DNA from: a virus
Reading direction: 5' to 3' (one strand)
DNA: 32,404 nt
Virus record (IMG/VR): IMGVR_UViG_3300008267_000201
Coordinates: 1-32,404 of that record
How positions within the stretch are numbered: the first letter of the stretch is position 1; each line of letters opens with the position of its first letter. Shown in pieces: positions 6,570-26,264 of the stretch. The position numbers and the translations under genes were made by a program. Below the pieces are notes generated by a model. The model did not search any database and was not told where the DNA came from. It was given only the letters and a program-made list of their open reading frames with translations.

Positions 6570-7820
6570 TTATTTTATATTATGGTAATTAGTACCTTTT
6601 TTAGTTTTAACTTGTAATTTATATTTATTAAATATTCCTAATACTTTAAGTATTACTTCAGGTTCATTTTGATCAAAATCAAATAAAAACGAGTCGTAAA
6701 CATATAATACAAGTTTTGTGTTTTTTCCTCGCAATATTTTAAAAATATCCCATAGTATAAGAACATTATTTGCTGTTTCCAAGTTTTGTAAAACATAATT
6801 TAAAAGCTTTTGTGGATTCATATTATCCAACTCACTTTTTAAAAATCTATGATTCGATATAGGGCACCTGATGTATCCATTTGTTTCAAAGTGTTTCCAT
6901 AGGTCGTCAGTATATGATTTTACTAATTTAAAGAATTCTAAATCTTCATATTCTTTCCATATACCTCCATATAGTTGTTTAAATGTTATTTCTTTTGCTC
7001 TTGCATAATCCACTCCGTACATTTTAGCAAAACTGCTGTGAATATCACCATCAGTGAAAGTATACTCCAATAAATTAGCAAGAAGGGTAGGATGATAAGC
7101 AGAAATATCCATTTCAAAGAAAAAATCATTGCGCGGTATAAAACATTTTCTTTCTCCATTATCTTTATTTAATGCTGAAAAATTTAGGTTGTTGAATGTG
7201 TTTGAAGGTCTTGTTGTTAATGTGTTTAGGTTATATTGCGTGTATATAAATTCGTCTGCATCTTGGTCAAAGTACTGTTCAAATAATGTTTGATCCACTT
7301 TTATACCCGCTCGTTCTAGTTGATTAAACACAAGTGCTGCTTTATTGTAAAACGGGTTTAATATTGAACTATTAAAGTTTACAAAATTCTGTTCGCATAC
7401 CTCATAATGTTTTACAATCGGAACTATTGTGTTTAAATCTTGTAAATTTGGGTATTTGTTGTAAATGTATGTATGAGCTTGTGTTAGTTGAGGTATATAC
7501 GTATGTGGGGAGGGTGAGGGTTGGTAGCAGTGCTTAATAGGGAAATAATGTAAAAACTCTTTTCTATCTCTTACATAAATGTATTTTATACTATTTAATA
7601 CTTTTAAACAATCTTCTATTGTTAAATTAATTGTTTCACTATGATTTATAGGTATAATATACCCTTTTGAGTCATCTCTTGGACGAATGTACAAAGAACA
7701 TATTTCATTCTTAACAGGATGCAAATCATGTGAAGTAGGGATTACTTCAGCATAAACCACTTCGTGTTTTATATTTGCTAAAATATCTATGTGTTTAGGA
7801 TCTTCTATAAGCCAATACAT
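6570..7820 (-). CDS. Compact family A (Pol I-like) DNA polymerase
   Basis: This 416-aa protein is the likely replicative polymerase. A TTRPSNTFNNLNFSALNK segment (202-219) matches the family A 'TGRLSS..PNLQNIP' region. Motif A is EMDISAYHPTLLANL (catalytic D238). Motif B is RAKEITFKQLYGG, with K276, F280 and Y284 in the places of E. coli K758, F762 and Y766. Motif C is VYDS (D376) instead of the usual VHDE. Residues 1-150 resemble a 3'-5' exonuclease fold, but the expected DTET motif reads AEVIP, so proofreading is probably lost. At 416 aa it is much shorter than usual (about 600-900 aa) and lacks a 5' nuclease domain; that activity is likely supplied by the separate FEN protein. T4 itself uses a family B enzyme; family A enzymes occur in far-T4 phages such as RM378. 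Confidence 0.85.
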   Translation of the reverse strand: MYWLIEDPKHIDILANIKHEVVYAEVIPTSHDLHPVKNEICSLYIRPRDDSKGYIIPINHSETINLTIEDCLKVLNSIKYIYVRDRKEFLHYFPIKHCYQPSPSPHTYIPQLTQAHTYIYNKYPNLQDLNTIVPIVKHYEVCEQNFVNFNSSILNPFYNKAALVFNQLERAGIKVDQTLFEQYFDQDADEFIYTQYNLNTLTTRPSNTFNNLNFSALNKDNGERKCFIPRNDFFFEMDISAYHPTLLANLLEYTFTDGDIHSSFAKMYGVDYARAKEITFKQLYGGIWKEYEDLEFFKLVKSYTDDLWKHFETNGYIRCPISNHRFLKSELDNMNPQKLLNYVLQNLETANNVLILWDIFKILRGKNTKLVLYVYDSFLFDFDQNEPEVILKVLGIFNKYKLQVKTKKGTNYHNIK

Positions 7821-19213: not shown

Positions 19214-19529
19214 TTATTTATATTTTACACTTTTTGATGGTGCGGTAGATGGTTTTTTAGTTGGAGAAGATGGAGTGCTAGATGTATGTCCTGGGTGTAT
19301 TACCTTTTGGTTAGGGTTTTTAGGGTTTTTCTTGGCTGCTTTATTTTCTTCTTCATAAAATTCTTTAATTTCATTAAAGATAAAACGGCGAAGGTATAGT
19401 GGCATATTATATACAACAGGCCAACTATACCCTCCTTTACCGTGAAAACAAATTTGATGAATTTGTCTGTAAACGTTTACTTTAGCTTCTGCTATTTCTT
19501 CTAGATTATCAGAAGTCAGGCCAAAAAAA
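19214..19529 (-). CDS. Second-frame extension of the tail chaperone gene (candidate frameshift product)
   Basis: This open frame has no good start codon of its own near its beginning. It is open from 19582 down to a stop at 19214, and its first ATG (19405) falls inside a coherent domain. Upstream of that ATG the frame encodes LTSDNLEEIAEAKVNVYRQI, then HQICFHGKGGYSWPVVYN and MPLYLRRFIFNEIKEFYEEE, followed by a Lys/Pro/Ser-rich tail. It is in the +1 (equivalently -2) frame relative to the upstream 243-aa gene and meets it at the T7 run at 19523-19529. A shift there would give a protein of about 341 aa. A single -1 shift would hit a stop at once. Independent initiation at 19405 (63 aa) is the alternative but would discard the conserved-looking part. 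Confidence 0.6.
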
Positions 19530-20240
19530 GTTAAGCCCGATTGGGATAGTAACTTTATTTGAATTTCCTGAGGGAAAAAAAGTTAGATCTACATCTGGTT
19601 GAAAATTTTTAATATGGTTTCTTAGTGCCTGGGAGTCTCGGGCTAGTAGGTGTTTATCTACAAATTCTCGAATGGTTTTTTGATCATCATTCCCATCAAT
19701 GGATGTAATCATATATTTTAATCTAGTAGATAGTTCTGGGGAGTTATCTCGATTAATTTTTTTAAGGCCTTCTAATTCACGGGAGATGTTTTGTTCGTCT
19801 TTATGAGTTAAGATTTTGAATGTTATTTTAGTTTTAGAAAGTGGAAGAGTAAAATCAAATTCGTTCCTACCAGGAGTAAATAATGATTCATCTAAAAGTT
19901 TAGGCTCTAGTTGAGATAAGCTAATAGTATGTTCTTCTTCATTATAAGTAAAGGTATATTCATCTCCATATCCTAAAACACGAGCAGCTAACATAATTGC
20001 ATTTTTATCTCCTACAACTAAATCATCATAATTAATAGGAGTTACAATCATTGCTTTTAATAATCTATCAATAGCAGTTCCATTTTTAATATAACTTTGG
20101 TTAAGAAGAATATCTTCTTCTTTAGCAGTCATATATTTCATATCAATATAACCTTTAGATAAAGGATTTTCAGGGGAATAAATTAAACCTTTTGAAGGTA
20201 ACTCAACCTTTTGAGTTGGTACTGTGTATTGTTCTTCCAT
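19509..20240 (-). CDS. T4 gp26-like baseplate hub / tail assembly chaperone protein
   Basis: This 243-aa protein carries ELPSKGLIYSPENPLSKGY (13-31), the TAKEEDILLNQSYIKNGTAIDRLL block, and DLVVGDKNAIMLAARVLGYG. This pattern matches the T4 gp26-type 'baseplate protein' family, which I recognise by eye. It ends PIGLNFFWPDF, a hydrophobic C-terminus typical of that family, so the zero-frame product looks complete. In phages with tape measure proteins, the gene just before the tape measure usually encodes the tail assembly chaperone, and a minor frameshifted form is common. Here the last codons overlap a second open frame at a T7 slippery run. It is unresolved whether it is a structural hub part or a chaperone. 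Confidence 0.75.
   Translation of the reverse strand: MEEQYTVPTQKVELPSKGLIYSPENPLSKGYIDMKYMTAKEEDILLNQSYIKNGTAIDRLLKAMIVTPINYDDLVVGDKNAIMLAARVLGYGDEYTFTYNEEEHTISLSQLEPKLLDESLFTPGRNEFDFTLPLSKTKITFKILTHKDEQNISRELEGLKKINRDNSPELSTRLKYMITSIDGNDDQKTIREFVDKHLLARDSQALRNHIKNFQPDVDLTFFPSGNSNKVTIPIGLNFFWPDF
19523..19529 (-). other. Candidate frameshift site (T7 run)
   Basis: In the sense strand the sequence reads AAC TTT TTT TGG CCT in the zero frame and ACT TTT TTT GGC CTG in the other. Seven consecutive T residues allow P-site re-pairing of Phe-tRNA in either frame. A second T7 run (19575-19581) lies at the upstream limit of the second open frame, so slippage anywhere between them would work. No obvious stimulatory stem was identified by eye. 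Confidence 0.5.
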
Positions 20241-20281: not shown

Positions 20282-20653
20282 TTAAAGAGCAGAAATATTA
20301 TCAGGATTTACATTATATGATAAAACTCCTTCTATTTTTAATATTGCTCTACGAATATCTTCCATTTTTGTACGATCAAAACCACCTTTTGTAATCCAAG
20401 GATGACCATCAACTTTAACAGTCATTATTGATTGGAATTTTTCTGTATCTTGTTCAGCATATTCCATCGGTTCTTTTACAGATGCTACTGTAATACCTGG
20501 TAGTGATCGGATGTCGGAAAATATTTCTTTTTGGGGGCGTTGTTTGATGTTAGTAATAAGCATCCCTACCATTTTAAATTTGTCTTGGTATTTTTCATTT
20601 AAAGCTTTTTTAAGCTCTTCTTGGATTATATTTTTTAATTGGTCTACTTTCAT
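20282..20653 (-). CDS. Small hypothetical protein in tail cluster
   Basis: This 123-aa protein has an N-terminal amphipathic helix (VDQLKNIIQEELKKALNEKY). An alternating beta-alpha pattern follows (SDIRSLPGITVASVKEP, FQSIMTVKVDGHPW, MEDIRRAILKIEGVLSYNV) that resembles a ferredoxin-like fold. No catalytic residues or membrane segments are visible. It lies between the secreted CHU_C-domain gene and the gp26-like gene. The ATATTTATAAT motif ends only 3 nt before its ATG. A tail assembly or scaffold role is plausible from position only. Confidence 0.75.
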   Translation of the reverse strand: MKVDQLKNIIQEELKKALNEKYQDKFKMVGMLITNIKQRPQKEIFSDIRSLPGITVASVKEPMEYAEQDTEKFQSIMTVKVDGHPWITKGGFDRTKMEDIRRAILKIEGVLSYNVNPDNISAL

Positions 20654-20656
20654 ACT

Positions 20657-20667
20657 ATTATAAATAT
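20657..20667 (-). promoter_or_regulatory. ATATTTATAAT motif before the 123-aa gene
   Basis: An exact sense copy lies only 3 nt before the ATG and 4 nt after the stop of the CHU_C-domain gene. If it is a -10-type promoter element, the message would be leaderless or nearly so. This spacing is the main argument that the motif might act in translation or RNA processing instead. Confidence 0.55.
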
Positions 20668-20671
20668 GGCA

Positions 20672-22051
20672 CTATTTAATAAGATTTACATGACCACTAA
20701 TTATTTTATTATTAACATTTACAATATAAACATAAACACCAGTTGAACAATTTTTATTACTATATGAACCATCCCAATAACCTTCAGGATCAGACGATTC
20801 ATATACTAATTCTCCCCAAACATTATAAATTGTAAAATAAAAATTATTAAAAATAAAACCATCACTAAATACAGGATGAAATATGTTATTATATTCATTC
20901 CCATCAGGAGTAAAACTGTTAGGGATAAAACAATATTGTTCAACAATTGTATCAAAAGAAGGTTCAGGTGAAGGTAAAATTGAATCAATACTATCATTAA
21001 CATGTATGTCTTCTATAATATCTTCAGGATTATCAATAATACTAATAGCAGGTTTAATAAATACTGTATCAAAAGTAGTGTTAGGGTATGTATATGTTAT
21101 CCAATCTCCACTGCATGAAGGATATTCAAAGTGGCATGTGTAATAAGATCCATTAGTTGAAGGAGTTACATCAATTGAAGCAACATTAAATCCTATAGGC
21201 GTTGAGTTTCCTACTTCATACCATACCAATGTAGGTATAATTTCATTTCCTGATGGGGTCCAGCGGTAAGCGTCATTATATGCTGACCAAATTGTTGCAT
21301 TTCGTCCTGGGGTTAGTATTATGTTGTCTCCTGAAAGGTTAGATATTCCTTGGGTAGCTTTGCTTTGGTATGCTGCCCACGAATAGGAAGGTTTTGATTG
21401 GGTGTATACTTCAATTACATTGGTTGATTCATGTAACACAATATGAAAATTTCCATTATCGTTTGGATTAGGTGAATTATACATTTGTGGTCCTAAAGGG
21501 ACATTAATCCAACTTACAACTAATTTTCTATTAGGAGCAGTACCTTGGGTTTGGTATTTAATATTACCCCCAAAAGTTGAGATTGGGTTCCAACTTTGCC
21601 AAACCCCAAAAATACAATTTTTTGGATTTATATAGTAATTATTAGGAAGTGGATTGTTGGGGAGTGCATTCATTTGGGTATTAAGCCAATTAGGGTCAAC
21701 AATATGAGGAGTAAATGAAATCCACCCATTAGAACAAATATAAAATTGAGAATATGACTGGCCAAAAAAACAGAAATCAAATCCAATATTGAGCATAGGT
21801 GAATATGAATCATCACTCATATTAGGAATAGCATTTCCTGTATTTGTTTGTGCTGTATAAGGTATATTAGATACAGTGTAATTTGTAGTTTCACGAGGGT
21901 TATTTAGTTGGGTAGGTTGATTTAAATTGGCGGTTAAAGTAGTTGATGATGCGCCGTAAGGTAATGTTTGATTTGAACCTAAATCAGGATATTGTTGACT
22001 ATAACCAACATAAACCAACAAAATAAATAAAATACTTTTTAGAACTTTCAT
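20672..22051 (-). CDS. Secreted protein with T9SS/gliding-motility (CHU_C) C-terminal domain
   Basis: This 459-aa protein starts with a classic signal peptide (basic MKVLK, hydrophobic SILFILLVYVG, likely cleavage after YSQ near residue 19). Residues about 85-270 look like a beta-rich adhesin or nidogen-like region (NIGFDFCFFGQSYSQFYICS, then NGWISF). An Ig-like stretch with paired Cys (C306, C313) spans about 272-335, followed by an acidic/Ser/Pro linker. The end (373-459) is a type B sorting domain of the type IX secretion system: FIPNSFTPDGNEYNNIF, FTIYNVWGELVYES, YWDG, GVYVYIV. Such proteins are exported and attached to the surface of Bacteroidetes cells. It sits alone behind a terminator inside the tail operon. 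Function in the phage is unknown; modification of the infected cell surface is one option. Confidence 0.9.
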   Translation of the reverse strand: MKVLKSILFILLVYVGYSQQYPDLGSNQTLPYGASSTTLTANLNQPTQLNNPRETTNYTVSNIPYTAQTNTGNAIPNMSDDSYSPMLNIGFDFCFFGQSYSQFYICSNGWISFTPHIVDPNWLNTQMNALPNNPLPNNYYINPKNCIFGVWQSWNPISTFGGNIKYQTQGTAPNRKLVVSWINVPLGPQMYNSPNPNDNGNFHIVLHESTNVIEVYTQSKPSYSWAAYQSKATQGISNLSGDNIILTPGRNATIWSAYNDAYRWTPSGNEIIPTLVWYEVGNSTPIGFNVASIDVTPSTNGSYYTCHFEYPSCSGDWITYTYPNTTFDTVFIKPAISIIDNPEDIIEDIHVNDSIDSILPSPEPSFDTIVEQYCFIPNSFTPDGNEYNNIFHPVFSDGFIFNNFYFTIYNVWGELVYESSDPEGYWDGSYSNKNCSTGVYVYIVNVNNKIISGHVNLIK

Positions 22052-22160: not shown

Positions 22161-22652
22161 TTAGTAGTTCAAGATACAATAATCTGGTTGTACTGTAACA
22201 GTAATGTTAACAGGTGTACCATCATCATCCCAGTTATAATCTCCAAAGTTAGCTTCAGTAATTACAGCTCCTTTAACAATCCATTCTGATACGTAATCAC
22301 CTACAGGGCCTACAGCGTTGAATGTAATGTCTTTTTTATAGAAATCAGAATAACCATCTCTACCTGTTACTGATTCGTGTCCTAAACGTACCCATTCCAT
22401 TACTGATTGTGCTCCAGAAGGAGTAATAGCATCATATAATGTAAAGGTAATAGTATTCCAGATAGTTTTTCCTTTTACATATCGTTGAATATTGATATGG
22501 TTAAGAGCTACAGCTGTTTGGGTCATAGATATTGCACTTACTCCTTTTACTAAGTATGCAGGAATCCCAGGTACTAAACTTAAATAAAAGCGATTAGTTT
22601 GTTTAGGTTCAAACGCTGTAAAGAATATCTGGTTATTGTCTAAAATTGGCAT
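22161..22652 (-). CDS. 19: Tail tube protein, gp19-like
   Basis: This 163-aa protein has the size and pattern of T4 gp19-family tube subunits, which stack into the inner tube through which DNA passes. Family-like elements are TNRFYLSLVPGIPAYLVKGV near the N-terminus, the WNTITFTLYDAITPSGAQ strand-loop, VMEWVRLGHE, and a C-terminal block EWIVKGAVITEANFGDYNWD followed by VNITVTVQPDYCILNY. It follows the two sheath genes, as gp18-gp19 does in T4, and is closed by a strong terminator. An ATATTTATAAT motif lies 20 nt upstream of the start. Confidence 0.92.
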   Translation of the reverse strand: MPILDNNQIFFTAFEPKQTNRFYLSLVPGIPAYLVKGVSAISMTQTAVALNHINIQRYVKGKTIWNTITFTLYDAITPSGAQSVMEWVRLGHESVTGRDGYSDFYKKDITFNAVGPVGDYVSEWIVKGAVITEANFGDYNWDDDGTPVNITVTVQPDYCILNY

Positions 22653-22672: not shown

Positions 22673-22683
22673 ATTATAAATAT
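22673..22683 (-). promoter_or_regulatory. ATATTTATAAT motif before the tail tube gene
   Basis: An exact sense copy lies 20 nt upstream of the gp19-like start, giving the tube gene its own possible promoter in addition to read-through from the sheath genes. That would fit the high copy number needed. Confidence 0.6.
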
Positions 22684-22699
22684 CTAAACATTTAATTTT

Positions 22700-24427
22700 T
22701 TATCCGGGGAATTCAGCTCCTGTTGGTAATAAGATGAAATCCAAAGAAATAAATTCAGCTGTGCGAGTAGGTTTAATATAAATTTGTCCTACTAATTGGT
22801 TTTGATCAATTACTGCTGGGCCGTTGTTTGTTTCATCCATTACTACTTTGTAAGCGTATAATCCTTGTTTTTGTTGGATACCATCTAAGTATGGGTTTAC
22901 TCTGGATAGGAATGAACCTCTAGTAATTGAAGTATTTTGTTCAAATACTACAGTATCCGCAATTTGACGAATATAATTTTTTAATTCAATCATTAATCGA
23001 CGTACGTTTACACGATCAAGAGCTGAATCTGCTTTTTGTAATGTTTTTTGTCCAAATACTACAACTCCTTGTTTAGGTAATGTTGCAATTGGATTTATAT
23101 TATTAGCATATAAAGTATCTCTATTACCTTGAGTTAATTTAAATTGTGCTTGTAACACTGTATTTAAACCACCACGGTTAATTCCAGCAGGTGCAAACCA
23201 AGGAGCAGCTACTTTATCATTAAATGCATAAACACCTGGTATTAATGTAGAGGCAGGTACCCAAACATGTTTTCCAGTTGCTGGGTCTACAATACGAACC
23301 CAAGGCCAGTAAGCAGCAGCATATGAAGTATCTCTAGTTTGGGCTTCAGCTACAACATCTCCTAAAGTACTATTAAATGAAGTTAAATCTACTACAAACA
23401 TATTATCTCCTCTATTTTGAGTATTTAACAAAATACTTGAAATTTGAGAAGTATGAGTGTCATTTAATAATCCTGGGGTAAATAGTAAATTGAATTGGTA
23501 TGCTTCACGGTTTCCTAGTAAAGTAATCATGTTATCATAATCACTTCCTACTAATCCTTGAGTGTTTGTACCAATTTGATCATAAAAATTAATATTTGGA
23601 GCTACAGTACCTGCAGCGCCTCCAAATGCTCCTCCAATAGATCCACTTCCCGCAGCTGGTAATGAGCCAGTGTATAATGGGTTAGCTACATTTCCATTAG
23701 AGTCTAAATAGTTAGGAGTAGTATAATTTATTTCTTTAACTCTTACATATCGAGAAATATTTGGATAACTACCAGATACTTCCATTTGTTGGTTTGCAGA
23801 ATTATATTTTAATTTTTGATCACCTATAGCTTTAGCAATAAAGCGATTAGAATTAGGATCTAAATTAACATTATTAAAGGCTTCTAAAACAGTTTTACTG
23901 TTTTGTGTGTCATCTCCTCTTCGGATTAATACATTAAAGTTTCCTGATCCTGTATTTGGTTGGGTAATTTCCCATCTTACATTTTCTTTACTTCCAGAAA
24001 CTAAAGAACCATTAATCATTGAACCTGAGTTGTTCATAATAGCTCCTTCAGATATAGTTTCAAGAACAAATGGAGATAATCCAGATGTTGGGCCGCTAGA
24101 TCCAGTAGGCATATAGCTACTTGTGGCTGATGCCCAGTTAGCTGAAGATGATACTACTCTAGTTACAAGTAATGAGGTTCCGCCGTAATTGAAGTAGTTA
24201 TAGGCAGCAATTGAAGTAAGGTAAGAATAAGCATTACCACCACTAATAAAATTATCCCCAAATAACATTTGGAAATCAGAATATGAAGTTACTAAAGTGG
24301 GTTTTTCAACAGGTCCTTTTACAGTAGGTCCTACAATGGCTGCACCGGCTTGAACGGGTTGTCCTGTTAAAAATGTATTGTCTATCTCACTAATTGCTAC
24401 TCCTGGAGAAGATGTAAAGTTTGCCAT
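22700..24427 (-). CDS. 18: Tail sheath protein (copy 2), gp18-like
   Basis: This 575-aa protein is the contractile sheath subunit. The N-terminus (SSPGVAISEIDNTFL, then AAIVGPTVKGPVEKPTLVTS) and the C-terminal core (ALDRVNVRRLMIELKNYIRQ, VFEQNT, FLSRVNPYLDGIQQKQGLYA, GQIYIKPTRTAEFISLDFI) are standard gp18 sheath signatures. The middle (about 90-330) is the variable surface-exposed region with many Ser, Gly and Asn. It is a close paralogue of the next gene upstream and is cotranscribed with the tube gene. An ATATTTATAAT motif precedes the start by 11 nt. Confidence 0.94.
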   Translation of the reverse strand: MANFTSSPGVAISEIDNTFLTGQPVQAGAAIVGPTVKGPVEKPTLVTSYSDFQMLFGDNFISGGNAYSYLTSIAAYNYFNYGGTSLLVTRVVSSSANWASATSSYMPTGSSGPTSGLSPFVLETISEGAIMNNSGSMINGSLVSGSKENVRWEITQPNTGSGNFNVLIRRGDDTQNSKTVLEAFNNVNLDPNSNRFIAKAIGDQKLKYNSANQQMEVSGSYPNISRYVRVKEINYTTPNYLDSNGNVANPLYTGSLPAAGSGSIGGAFGGAAGTVAPNINFYDQIGTNTQGLVGSDYDNMITLLGNREAYQFNLLFTPGLLNDTHTSQISSILLNTQNRGDNMFVVDLTSFNSTLGDVVAEAQTRDTSYAAAYWPWVRIVDPATGKHVWVPASTLIPGVYAFNDKVAAPWFAPAGINRGGLNTVLQAQFKLTQGNRDTLYANNINPIATLPKQGVVVFGQKTLQKADSALDRVNVRRLMIELKNYIRQIADTVVFEQNTSITRGSFLSRVNPYLDGIQQKQGLYAYKVVMDETNNGPAVIDQNQLVGQIYIKPTRTAEFISLDFILLPTGAEFPG

Positions 24428-24470: not shown

Positions 24471-26264
24471 TTATTGGGTAGGAAATGTTGCCCCAGTAGG
24501 TAATATATTAAAATCTAATAAAATGAATTCAGCTGTTTTAGTAGGTTGAAGATAAATCTGTCCTATTAATTGATTTTGATCAACTACTTCAGGAGGGTTA
24601 TTAGACTCGTCCATTATTACTTGAAAAGCTGTTAAACCTTCTTGTTGTTGGACAATAGATAAATAAGGAGTTACTAAAGATAAAAATTGTTCTCTAGTTG
24701 CTGGAGTGTTTTGTTCAAAGACAAAACTTGTGGCTATACGGGAAATGTAATTTTTTAGGTTAATTAACAAACGCCTTACATTAACACGAGTTAATGATGT
24801 GTTTTGGGTTTGTAATGTTTTTTGCCCATATACTACTATAGCACCTCCTTGAGCTGTTGGAATTGAAGCTATAGGATTGACTTTATTTTGATAAAGTATA
24901 TCTCTATTACCTTGAGTTAATATTTTTTCAGTTTGAGTAGCTATAGTCATAACTCCTCTATTTACACCAGCAGGAGCTAACCACGGGTATCCATTTTTAT
25001 CATTAAATGCATATACACCAGGTATAAATGTAGAAGCAGGAGACCATACTTGAGTAGAAGAATTAGGAGGATGTACTGCTTTTACCCAAGGCCAATAAGC
25101 AGCAGCATATGAAGTGTCTTGGTTTTGAGCATTGGATGTAACTTGCCCTAAATTCTCATTATATTTAGCTAAATCAATAATAGCCATACAATTTCCTCTA
25201 TTTTCAACAACATTTATTAGTTGATTTATTACGCTATTGCTATCTGGGAAGAAATTTGGGTCGGCTATTAATCCTGGGGTGGTGATTATGTTGTAATTGT
25301 ATGCGTCTTTATTGGCTAGTAATGAAATAGATTCAGTGTAAGCAAATGGGCTTAAGCCTTGTATGTTAGCATCAGTAATATTTTCATTGTATAAACCATC
25401 ATATACTGTTGGTATGATATCTCCTTTTCCATCACCAAACACTCCACTTTGAGCTATAGGAATAGAACCAGTGTATTGGGGTTTAGGTAAACCATTATTA
25501 TCAAAATAATTGGGTGTAGGTTGATTTACCTGTTTTACCCTAATAGTTGAGTATTTATTAGGATAACTACCAGATAATTGAGTATAATATTCTCCCGTTG
25601 TTGGGTCTTGGCTGATGAGTTCAATTTGGTTTCCTATTACCTTTTCAATGTAATTAGATGAATTAGGGTCTAATGATACAGGGCCTATAGTATCTATTAT
25701 AGACATTAAAGTAGCTGAATCATTACCTTGTCTAATGATCAAAGAAAAAGTTCCAGATTGTGTATTAGGTGATACTATTTGGAATCTGTAGTTATCAGCA
25801 GATCCACTTAATAAAGTACCATTAGAACCAGTAGGCCCAACACTATTCATTATTATTCCTTCAGATAACGTTTCTAAAACAAAAACATCAGTATCATAAG
25901 GAGCACCAGCAGCATGAGCTGAAGATGATATAAAAGATGAAGTAGCTGGGGTCCAGTCATTTGTTGTACTCCCACTTACAACTCTAGTAACTAACAAAGC
26001 TCCAGGGTTAGGGCTTAGGTTTTGGAAGTAATTATAAGCAGCAAGTGAAGTAAAGTATGTATAAGTTGTTCCACCACTAACAAAAGTTTCACCATATTTG
26101 TTTTTATAATCAGAATATGATGTAACTATAGTAGGAATACCTACTTTACCCTTAACTGTTGGGCCTATAATAGCAGCATCTGCCTGTACAGGGAGCTGTA
26201 AGACAAAAGGTTGGTCGTTTTCTACTGCTAATATCCCAGGTGAGACAATTGTTTCTGAAGGCAT
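24471..26264 (-). CDS. 18: Tail sheath protein (copy 1), gp18-like
   Basis: This 597-aa paralogue of the following sheath gene has the same domain order: SPGILAVENDQPFVLQLPVQ, DAAIIGPTVKGKVGIPTIVTS, TRVNVRRLLINLKNYISRIA, FVFEQNTPATREQFLSLV, GQIYLQPTKTAEFILLDF. The conserved assembly core is shared, while the surface-exposed middle differs. Both copies keep all core motifs, so neither looks like a pseudogene. The pair may build a mixed sheath, or one may be specialised for one end of the tail. A variant motif (ATATTTATAAC) lies 16 nt before its start. Confidence 0.93.
   Translation of the reverse strand: MPSETIVSPGILAVENDQPFVLQLPVQADAAIIGPTVKGKVGIPTIVTSYSDYKNKYGETFVSGGTTYTYFTSLAAYNYFQNLSPNPGALLVTRVVSGSTTNDWTPATSSFISSSAHAAGAPYDTDVFVLETLSEGIIMNSVGPTGSNGTLLSGSADNYRFQIVSPNTQSGTFSLIIRQGNDSATLMSIIDTIGPVSLDPNSSNYIEKVIGNQIELISQDPTTGEYYTQLSGSYPNKYSTIRVKQVNQPTPNYFDNNGLPKPQYTGSIPIAQSGVFGDGKGDIIPTVYDGLYNENITDANIQGLSPFAYTESISLLANKDAYNYNIITTPGLIADPNFFPDSNSVINQLINVVENRGNCMAIIDLAKYNENLGQVTSNAQNQDTSYAAAYWPWVKAVHPPNSSTQVWSPASTFIPGVYAFNDKNGYPWLAPAGVNRGVMTIATQTEKILTQGNRDILYQNKVNPIASIPTAQGGAIVVYGQKTLQTQNTSLTRVNVRRLLINLKNYISRIATSFVFEQNTPATREQFLSLVTPYLSIVQQQEGLTAFQVIMDESNNPPEVVDQNQLIGQIYLQPTKTAEFILLDFNILPTGATFPTQ

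What the first reader, a model, noticed from the sequence alone, without database searches (positions are those of the whole stretch)
20672..22051. Phage gene for a type IX-secreted surface protein inside the tail operon
The 459-aa product has a clear signal peptide, adhesin-like beta domains and a CHU_C/gliding-motility type C-terminal sorting domain. This is a Bacteroidetes host export signal, unexpected among sheath, tube and tape-measure genes. It implies the phage loads its host's T9SS to display or release a protein during infection. Possible roles are blocking superinfection, altering adhesion or gliding, or masking receptors. Alternatively, the domain could be reused in the virion.
Basis: partly seen in the sequence, partly recalled or inferred. 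Interest (0 to 1): 0.88.

Follow-up and report, generated by a model that had tools for sequence, protein, structure and literature searches.

The report
Phage-made host-surface protein, T9SS type B
A large family of uncultured bacteriophages that infect Bacteroidota carries a gene for a protein tagged for the host's own type IX secretion system, so the infected cell most likely displays a viral protein on its surface, probably to change how other phages or surfaces stick to it.

Summary
Window 22051→20672 encodes 459 aa: Sec signal peptide with Gln at +1, a ~315-aa beta domain of no solved fold, a disordered linker, and a C-terminal CHU_C / T9SS type B sorting domain (Pfam E 1.2e-11; TIGR04131 36.6 bits, cut-off 35). 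It is not a chimera: orthologs lie between tube and g123/hub in 28 of 44 fully visible sheath-seeded loci of the same T4-like clade (12 lack it, 3 are split, 1 is a deletion remnant), under purifying selection. Longer orthologs add SprB repeats and PKD domains. The family also sits outside tail modules in other phages; all 85 sampled phage N-domains form one clade, Bacteroidota homologs outside. The gene lacks its neighbours' late-promoter motif (0/58; tube 69/70) and has a TTG-N20-TATWTT promoter-like site (49/58). No PorP/SprF shuttle was found in 23 phage records. Best reading: a horizontally spread accessory gene ("moron"), not a tail part, whose product is exported by the host T9SS and anchored on a host shuttle, remodelling the surface. 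Superinfection exclusion or receptor masking is the likeliest benefit, unproven. Phage T9SS cargo is known (type A, Cryophage); this type B family appears undescribed in the papers held.

The parts
20672..22051 (-). Whole ORF, 459 aa phage T9SS type B cargo protein
   Evidence: orthologs at the same locus
21998..22051 (-). Sec signal peptide, residues 1-18, MKVLKSILFILLVYVGYS
   Evidence: sequence; AlphaFold2 helix 2-17; aligned signal peptides
21995..21997 (-). Gln19, predicted +1 residue after signal peptidase I (Bacteroidetes Q-rule)
   Evidence: invariant in 23 relatives; Q-rule PMC5837995
21050..21997 (-). N-terminal all-beta domain, residues about 19-334, shared by the phage members (except the split loci) and by Bacteroidota surface proteins; no solved fold
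20933..21049 (-). Low-confidence acidic linker, residues about 335-373; orthologs carry SprB repeats and PKD-like domains in this place
   Evidence: pLDDT below 50 at 340-371; PF13573 and PF19408 in orthologs
20675..20932 (-). C-terminal T9SS type B sorting domain (CHU_C / Bac_Flav_CTERM), residues about 374-459
   Evidence: PF13585 and TIGR04131
22072..22101 (-). Promoter-like site of its own, TTG-N20-TATATTT
   Evidence: resembles the TAnnTTTG -7 box of flavobacterial sigma-A (PMC9723704)
22104..22139 (-). Terminator-like hairpin and T run that closes the upstream tube gene
   Evidence: sequence; present also in loci lacking the cargo gene
20659..20666 (-). Late-type motif TATTTATA of the next gene g123; the cargo gene has none
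22161..22652 (-). Upstream neighbour: tail tube (gp19-like)
   Evidence: phrog_4542, E 1.2e-21
20282..20653 (-). Downstream neighbour g123, conserved phage protein of unsure function
19509..20240 (-). Next downstream neighbour: baseplate hub (T4-like)
   Evidence: phrog_150, E 7.6e-12

Best explanation
The gene is a phage accessory gene (moron-like cassette) encoding a cargo of the host's type IX secretion system. Inferred path: the protein is made from its own non-late promoter; exported by Sec; signal peptidase I exposes Gln19, which is cyclised; the C-terminal type B domain is carried through the SprA translocon and captured by one of the host's PorP/SprF-like shuttle barrels, since no shuttle gene was found in the phages; the mature N-domain is thus held on the surface of the infected cell. 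There it remodels the surface. The likeliest benefit is keeping other phages off (superinfection exclusion or receptor masking), possibly by using up a shuttle that the host's own gliding adhesin needs. Shown here: the domains, conservation, purifying selection, separate promoter-motif class, spread among phage lineages, no shuttle gene found. Inferred: actual secretion, timing, anchoring and the benefit. My estimates: exported and displayed by T9SS 0.85; not a late or virion gene 0.75; superinfection exclusion or receptor masking as the main benefit 0.4.
For: Sorting domain over both curated cut-offs. Q+1 invariant; across Bacteroidetes species the mean Q-value is 71% (PMC5837995). Complete unsplit phage copies not cut by a contig end keep the sorting domain. 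Pairwise dN/dS about 0.04-0.23 in the N-domain and 0.05-0.29 in the sorting domain. Same locus in 28 of 44 sheath-seeded loci with both flanks visible; the absences need 5 changes on the sheath+tube tree, at least 4 forced by well-supported branches. TATTTATA within 75 nt upstream of tube 69/70, sheath2 59/61, g123 53/53, cargo gene 0/58; TTG-N20-TATWTT at cargo 49/58 against 0/70 at tube, 0.7% in shuffles. In a 174-kb relative (G023) the second motif precedes the ssb-like gene and other mostly non-structural genes, 11 found against 0.4 expected. Outside tail modules in other phages, near thymidylate synthase, topoisomerase, RNA ligase or endolysin genes. All 85 phage N-domains form one clade (99/96) with T4-like and other phages intermixed. 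No PorP/SprF gene in 23 phage records, against 7-20 hits in each of 11 Bacteroidota genomes. Type B substrates are anchored on PorP-like proteins (PMC9143113); shuttles are scarce and apparently not recycled, orphans share one shuttle, and a type B CTD can drive a substrate to the gliding machinery (PMC12618676). Phage receptors in F. columnare are thought likely to be part of the gliding machinery (PMC7345892).
Against: No secretion, expression or infection data. The host is unknown. The promoter argument rests on motif matches in related sequences; in many loci the TTG box lies in the conserved tube terminator arm, and read-through from the late tube promoter is possible. Clean absence in 12 of 44 loci and the L043 deletion show the gene is dispensable. 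Type B CTDs are highly specific for their shuttles, so an orphan phage cargo might be secreted poorly. The N-domain has no fold match that points to a binding function.
Confidence: 0.55

Rival explanations
1. Surface cargo that changes adhesion, aggregation or gliding of infected cells, so that progeny are released where new hosts are, rather than excluding other phages.
For: Long orthologs carry SprB repeats, PKD-like domains and the type B sorting domain, as gliding adhesins do; the CTD alone can send a substrate to the gliding machinery (PMC12618676); complete Bacteroidota homologs are about 700-2500-aa proteins of the same layout.
Against: The window copy and other short forms lack the repeat region and keep only the N-domain and sorting domain. 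No adhesin fold was recognised in the N-domain.
Confidence: 0.25
2. Virion part: the protein decorates the tail or capsid and the sorting domain is merely reused as a structural beta domain.
For: Physical position among tube, hub, sheath and tape-measure genes; beta domains are common in phage decoration proteins.
Against: Conserved signal peptide with Q at +1 would take it out of the cytoplasm where virions assemble; no late motif; outside tail modules in other lineages; absent from the immuto tail cluster and from 12 of 44 relatives that keep the flanking tail genes.
Confidence: 0.07
3. Released extracellular factor: secreted into the medium rather than anchored, acting on competitors, debris or free phage.
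For: Type B reporter fusions can reach the supernatant when the shuttle is co-produced (PMC12618676).
Against: Studied type B cargo appears surface-anchored on PorP-like proteins (PMC9143113); no enzymatic domain found.
Confidence: 0.1
4. Inert passenger: a captured host gene with no present role.
For: Several independent absences and one internal deletion remnant.
Against: Purifying selection in N-domain and sorting domain, intact reading frames, spread through several phage lineages.
Confidence: 0.03

Closest known systems
T9SS type B cargo proteins (TIGR04131 / PF13585), e.g. SprB of Flavobacterium johnsoniae
   Same: Sec signal peptide, C-terminal type B domain above curated cut-offs, SprB repeats and PKD-like domains in long orthologs
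   Different: Phage-encoded, far smaller than SprB (669 kDa, PMC9143113), no porP/sprF gene in 23 phage records; the window copy has no SprB repeat
T9SS cargo genes of 'Cryophage' from cryoconite holes (PMC7468147)
   Same: Phage genes for host T9SS cargo, variable between relatives; superinfection is among the roles the authors raise
   Different: Those are type A sorting domains on an endoglucanase, a GH39 and a PA14 protein in one phage; this is a type B family with one N-domain found in several phage lineages
crAss-like phage BACON proteins with T9SS sorting domain (PMC6949934)
   Same: Phage ORF with a T9SS sorting domain near structural genes
   Different: Different domains, human gut phages, one ORF with both domains mentioned
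LR745206.1, uncultured 635-kb phage, 732-aa protein (L002:11956-14154)
   Same: Same N-domain, a weak SprB-repeat match just under its cut-off, PKD-like domain and CHU_C; inside the phage clade
   Different: Neighbours read as translation and unknown genes, not a tail cluster; the record has four CHU_C matches
Bacteroidota homologs (L084-L126), e.g. Crocinitomix algicola L112
   Same: Same N-domain and, where complete, mostly CHU_C at the C-terminus
   Different: Mostly longer, from cellular genomes, outside the phage clade

Membership tests
T9SS type B cargo (TIGR04131 / PF13585) | C-terminal sorting domain over the curated cut-off, at the very C-terminus | tested here: met
   45.1 bits vs 27; 36.6 bits vs 35, residues 376-458 of 459
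T9SS type B cargo (TIGR04131 / PF13585) | N-terminal Sec signal peptide | tested here: met
   By sequence shape, AlphaFold2 helix and conservation, not by SignalP
T9SS type B cargo (TIGR04131 / PF13585) | Secreted through SprA with a PorP/SprF shuttle | not testable with these tools
   No shuttle gene in phage records; a host shuttle must be assumed
SprB gliding adhesin | SprB repeats | tested here: not met
   None in the window copy; present in longer orthologs
SprB gliding adhesin | sprF directly downstream | tested here: not met
   Next gene is g123; no PF11751 in phage records
Phage moron | Autonomous promoter, distinct from the flanking late genes | tested here: met
   By motif only
Phage moron | Present or absent between relatives without loss of flanking genes | tested here: met
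   28 present, 12 absent, 3 split, 1 remnant
Phage moron | Own terminator after the gene | tested here: inconclusive
   16-19 nt to the next gene, no hairpin seen there by eye; the terminator-like hairpin present belongs to the tube gene
Superinfection exclusion protein | Blocks adsorption or entry of other phages | not testable with these tools
   Needs infection assays
Virion structural protein | Late expression with flanking tail genes | tested here: not met
   Late motif 0/58 against 53/53 (g123) and 69/70 (tube); motif evidence only

The most novel reading that the evidence does not exclude
A phage-specialised family of T9SS type B cargo, spread between distant Bacteroidota phages, that works by capturing the host's scarce, non-recycled PorP/SprF shuttles: it displaces the host's gliding adhesin (a candidate phage receptor) from the surface and puts a viral protein in its place, a superinfection-exclusion mechanism acting through competition for a secretion shuttle.
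Probability: 0.22. Interest if true: 0.9.

Novelty: new variant of a known kind. Interest (0 to 1): 0.72.

Why it matters
Phages that use their host's export machinery to dress the infected cell are little studied in Bacteroidota, a phylum with its own secretion system and gliding machinery. A conserved type B cargo family, in several phage lineages and with a promoter motif unlike its late neighbours, gives a concrete gene to test whether viruses take over T9SS and gliding to control adsorption, adhesion or superinfection. It also supplies natural orphan type B cargo for asking which host shuttle accepts it.

Tried and rejected
Search of viral contigs with the window protein alone found nothing, because this short copy is divergent; seeding with the sheath gene and then with an N-domain alignment found the family. 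PHROGs has no family for it. PDB sequence searches found nothing. Foldseek of the full model gave only generic Ig/FnIII-type chains with TM about 0.1, and the N-domain alone gave no hit with E below 0.001, so no function was read from fold. Chimera rejected: same gene at the same place in independent contigs, and GC and GC3 like its neighbours. A phage-encoded shuttle was looked for and not found (the positive control is). Association of presence with a host group could not be tested, as hosts are unknown. A strict TTTG-N19/21-TAnnTTTG promoter pattern gave one site, inside the gene, and was dropped for the looser one. The type B motifs A-E of PMC12618676 could not be checked one by one because their letters are only in a figure.

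Full report
What is there. The finding's coordinates are right, the strand is minus. The 459-aa ORF has a signal peptide, MKVLKSILFILLVYVGYS|QQ, a beta-rich N-domain, a poorly ordered acidic linker and a C-terminal CHU_C / T9SS type B sorting domain that passes both curated cut-offs. AlphaFold2 on an alignment of 49 relatives gives mean pLDDT 82 with well-predicted N-domain and sorting domain and a linker mostly below 50 at 340-371. The N-domain modelled alone reaches pTM 0.82 but matches no solved structure by profile or by fold.

Where it sits. The window is a linear 32,404-base IMG/VR record with T4-like genes: two sheath paralogs, tube, hub, tape measure, and ssb-, UvsX-, helicase- and ribonucleotide-reductase-like genes; tube, sheath and hub are supported by family scans, the rest by my reading of the sequence. 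The nearest cultured phage by sheath is Flavobacterium phage immuto (50%), whose tail cluster runs sheath, tube, hub, tape measure with no such gene between.

Not a chimera, but an accessory gene. Of 80 contigs fetched by their sheath gene, 44 show both flanks: 28 have the gene intact, 3 a split version, 1 a deletion remnant and 12 only a gap of 80-132 bases. On a tree of sheath plus tube the absences need 5 changes, of which starred branches force 4. These counts come from contigs seeded by the sheath gene, so they are not biased by the cargo gene; loci L127-L201 were seeded by the cargo gene and are not used for frequencies (some of them do enter the tree). No record of this clade that was searched has more than one CHU_C match.

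Architecture. Complete unsplit orthologs in the T4-like clade are 409-820 aa. Long ones carry SprB repeats (E 6.7e-17 in L033), PKD-like domains and CHU_C; the window's group and others (L010/L016, L039/L054) are short. N-domain and sorting domain are kept in all complete unsplit phage copies seen; the profile listing shows weak first rows for a few of them (for example L064, L134), whose C-termini nevertheless read as the sorting domain. Pairwise dN/dS is well under 1 in both domains wherever it could be computed.

Promoter. In this clade the octamer TATTTATA lies within 75 nt upstream of tube (69/70), sheath2 (59/61) and g123 (53/53) but never of the cargo gene (0/58). The cargo gene has TTG-N20-TATWTT in 49/58, tube in 0/70; random shuffles of the same stretches give 0.7%. 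In two long relatives, read in 20-kb pieces, the first motif marks sheath, tube, tape measure and similar genes; the second marks a set of mostly non-structural genes: the ssb-like gene and the cargo gene itself in one of them, and across the two a pyrimidine-dimer glycosylase, oxidoreductases, a DUF932 protein and a glycosyltransferase. TATWTT resembles the TAnnTTTG -7 box of flavobacterial sigma-A (PMC9723704). A terminator-like hairpin closes the tube gene just before it. I read this as a separately transcribed, non-late unit. Caveats: related sequences are not independent, and in many loci the TTG box is part of the terminator's conserved arm.

Other phages and bacteria. The same N-domain plus CHU_C occurs in viral contigs with no T4-like tail gene of this kind nearby. 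Family scans of chosen neighbours found thymidylate synthase, DNA ligase, RNA ligase, topoisomerase and a GH19 endolysin. Bacteroidota genomes hold homologs, about 41-62% identical in the N-domain, with the same layout. In a maximum-likelihood tree of 126 N-domains all 85 phage sequences form one supported clade, T4-like and other phages intermixed, bacterial ones outside (the tool notes that its bootstrap had not fully settled, and the root is a midpoint). The simplest story is one entry into phages from Bacteroidota followed by transfer between phages. Among 50,697 annotated phage records only two, both uncultured and over 630 kb, have a type B domain like this.

How it probably works. Type B cargo needs PorP/SprF-like shuttles, which are scarce and apparently not recycled, with some orphan cargoes sharing one shuttle (PMC12618676); type B proteins appear to be anchored on PorP-like proteins (PMC9143113), and SprF is tied by a disulfide to the moving gliding track (PMC12635249). 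No shuttle gene was found in 23 phage records, while each of 11 Bacteroidota genomes has 7-20 matches. The phage protein would therefore have to borrow a host shuttle. Placing it on the surface could mask a receptor, displace a host adhesin or change adhesion. Phage receptors in F. columnare are thought likely to belong to the gliding machinery (PMC7345892), which makes exclusion the favourite, without proof.

Known or new. Phage-borne T9SS cargo has been reported: three type A cargo genes in Cryophage, called a unique occurrence (PMC7468147), and crAss-like BACON ORFs near or with a T9SS sorting domain (PMC6949934). Structure libraries list uncultured phage proteins named 'gliding motility-associated C-terminal domain'. 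In the papers held I found no description of this family, its fixed tail-cluster locus, its promoter or its clade. I file it as a new variant of a known kind.

Noticed in passing
L074:8939-10716, L075:3028-4805, L076:12283-14060: The locus holds three consecutive genes instead of one, each with its own signal peptide and Q at +1; only the third ends in CHU_C, the first two end in HN. The first has a different N-domain.
   Followed up: partly
L043:12336-12584: Remnant of the cargo gene: about 75 N-terminal codons joined out of frame to the last part of the sorting domain by an internal deletion.
   Followed up: partly
L177:10344-13597 (also L178, L182): Downstream of the cargo gene: by reading, a PAS/GAF-type sensor histidine kinase and a response-regulator-like protein, then an endolysin; a phage two-component system would be unusual.
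   Followed up: no
L206:13667-15571 (G023 near 95 kb): A second T9SS cargo, type A sorting domain (PF18962), 634 aa with signal peptide; PF18962 matches also in 6 other phage records, immuto among them.
   Followed up: partly
window 20659-20666 and 22675-22682, minus strand, and upstream of other structural genes: Late-gene motif TATTTATA, the reverse complement of the T4 late -10 TATAAATA (the latter from memory), just upstream of structural genes.
   Followed up: partly
window 22700-24427 and 24471-26264: Two tandem sheath paralogs, kept in nearly all relatives.
   Followed up: no
L002:9523-25953: The 635-kb phage record carries translation genes near its cargo gene: by reading, aminoacyl-tRNA synthetase-like proteins, an elongation factor G and a peptide deformylase.
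   Followed up: no
window 6570-7820: A 416-aa protein that reads like the palm part of a family A DNA polymerase without the rest.
   Followed up: no
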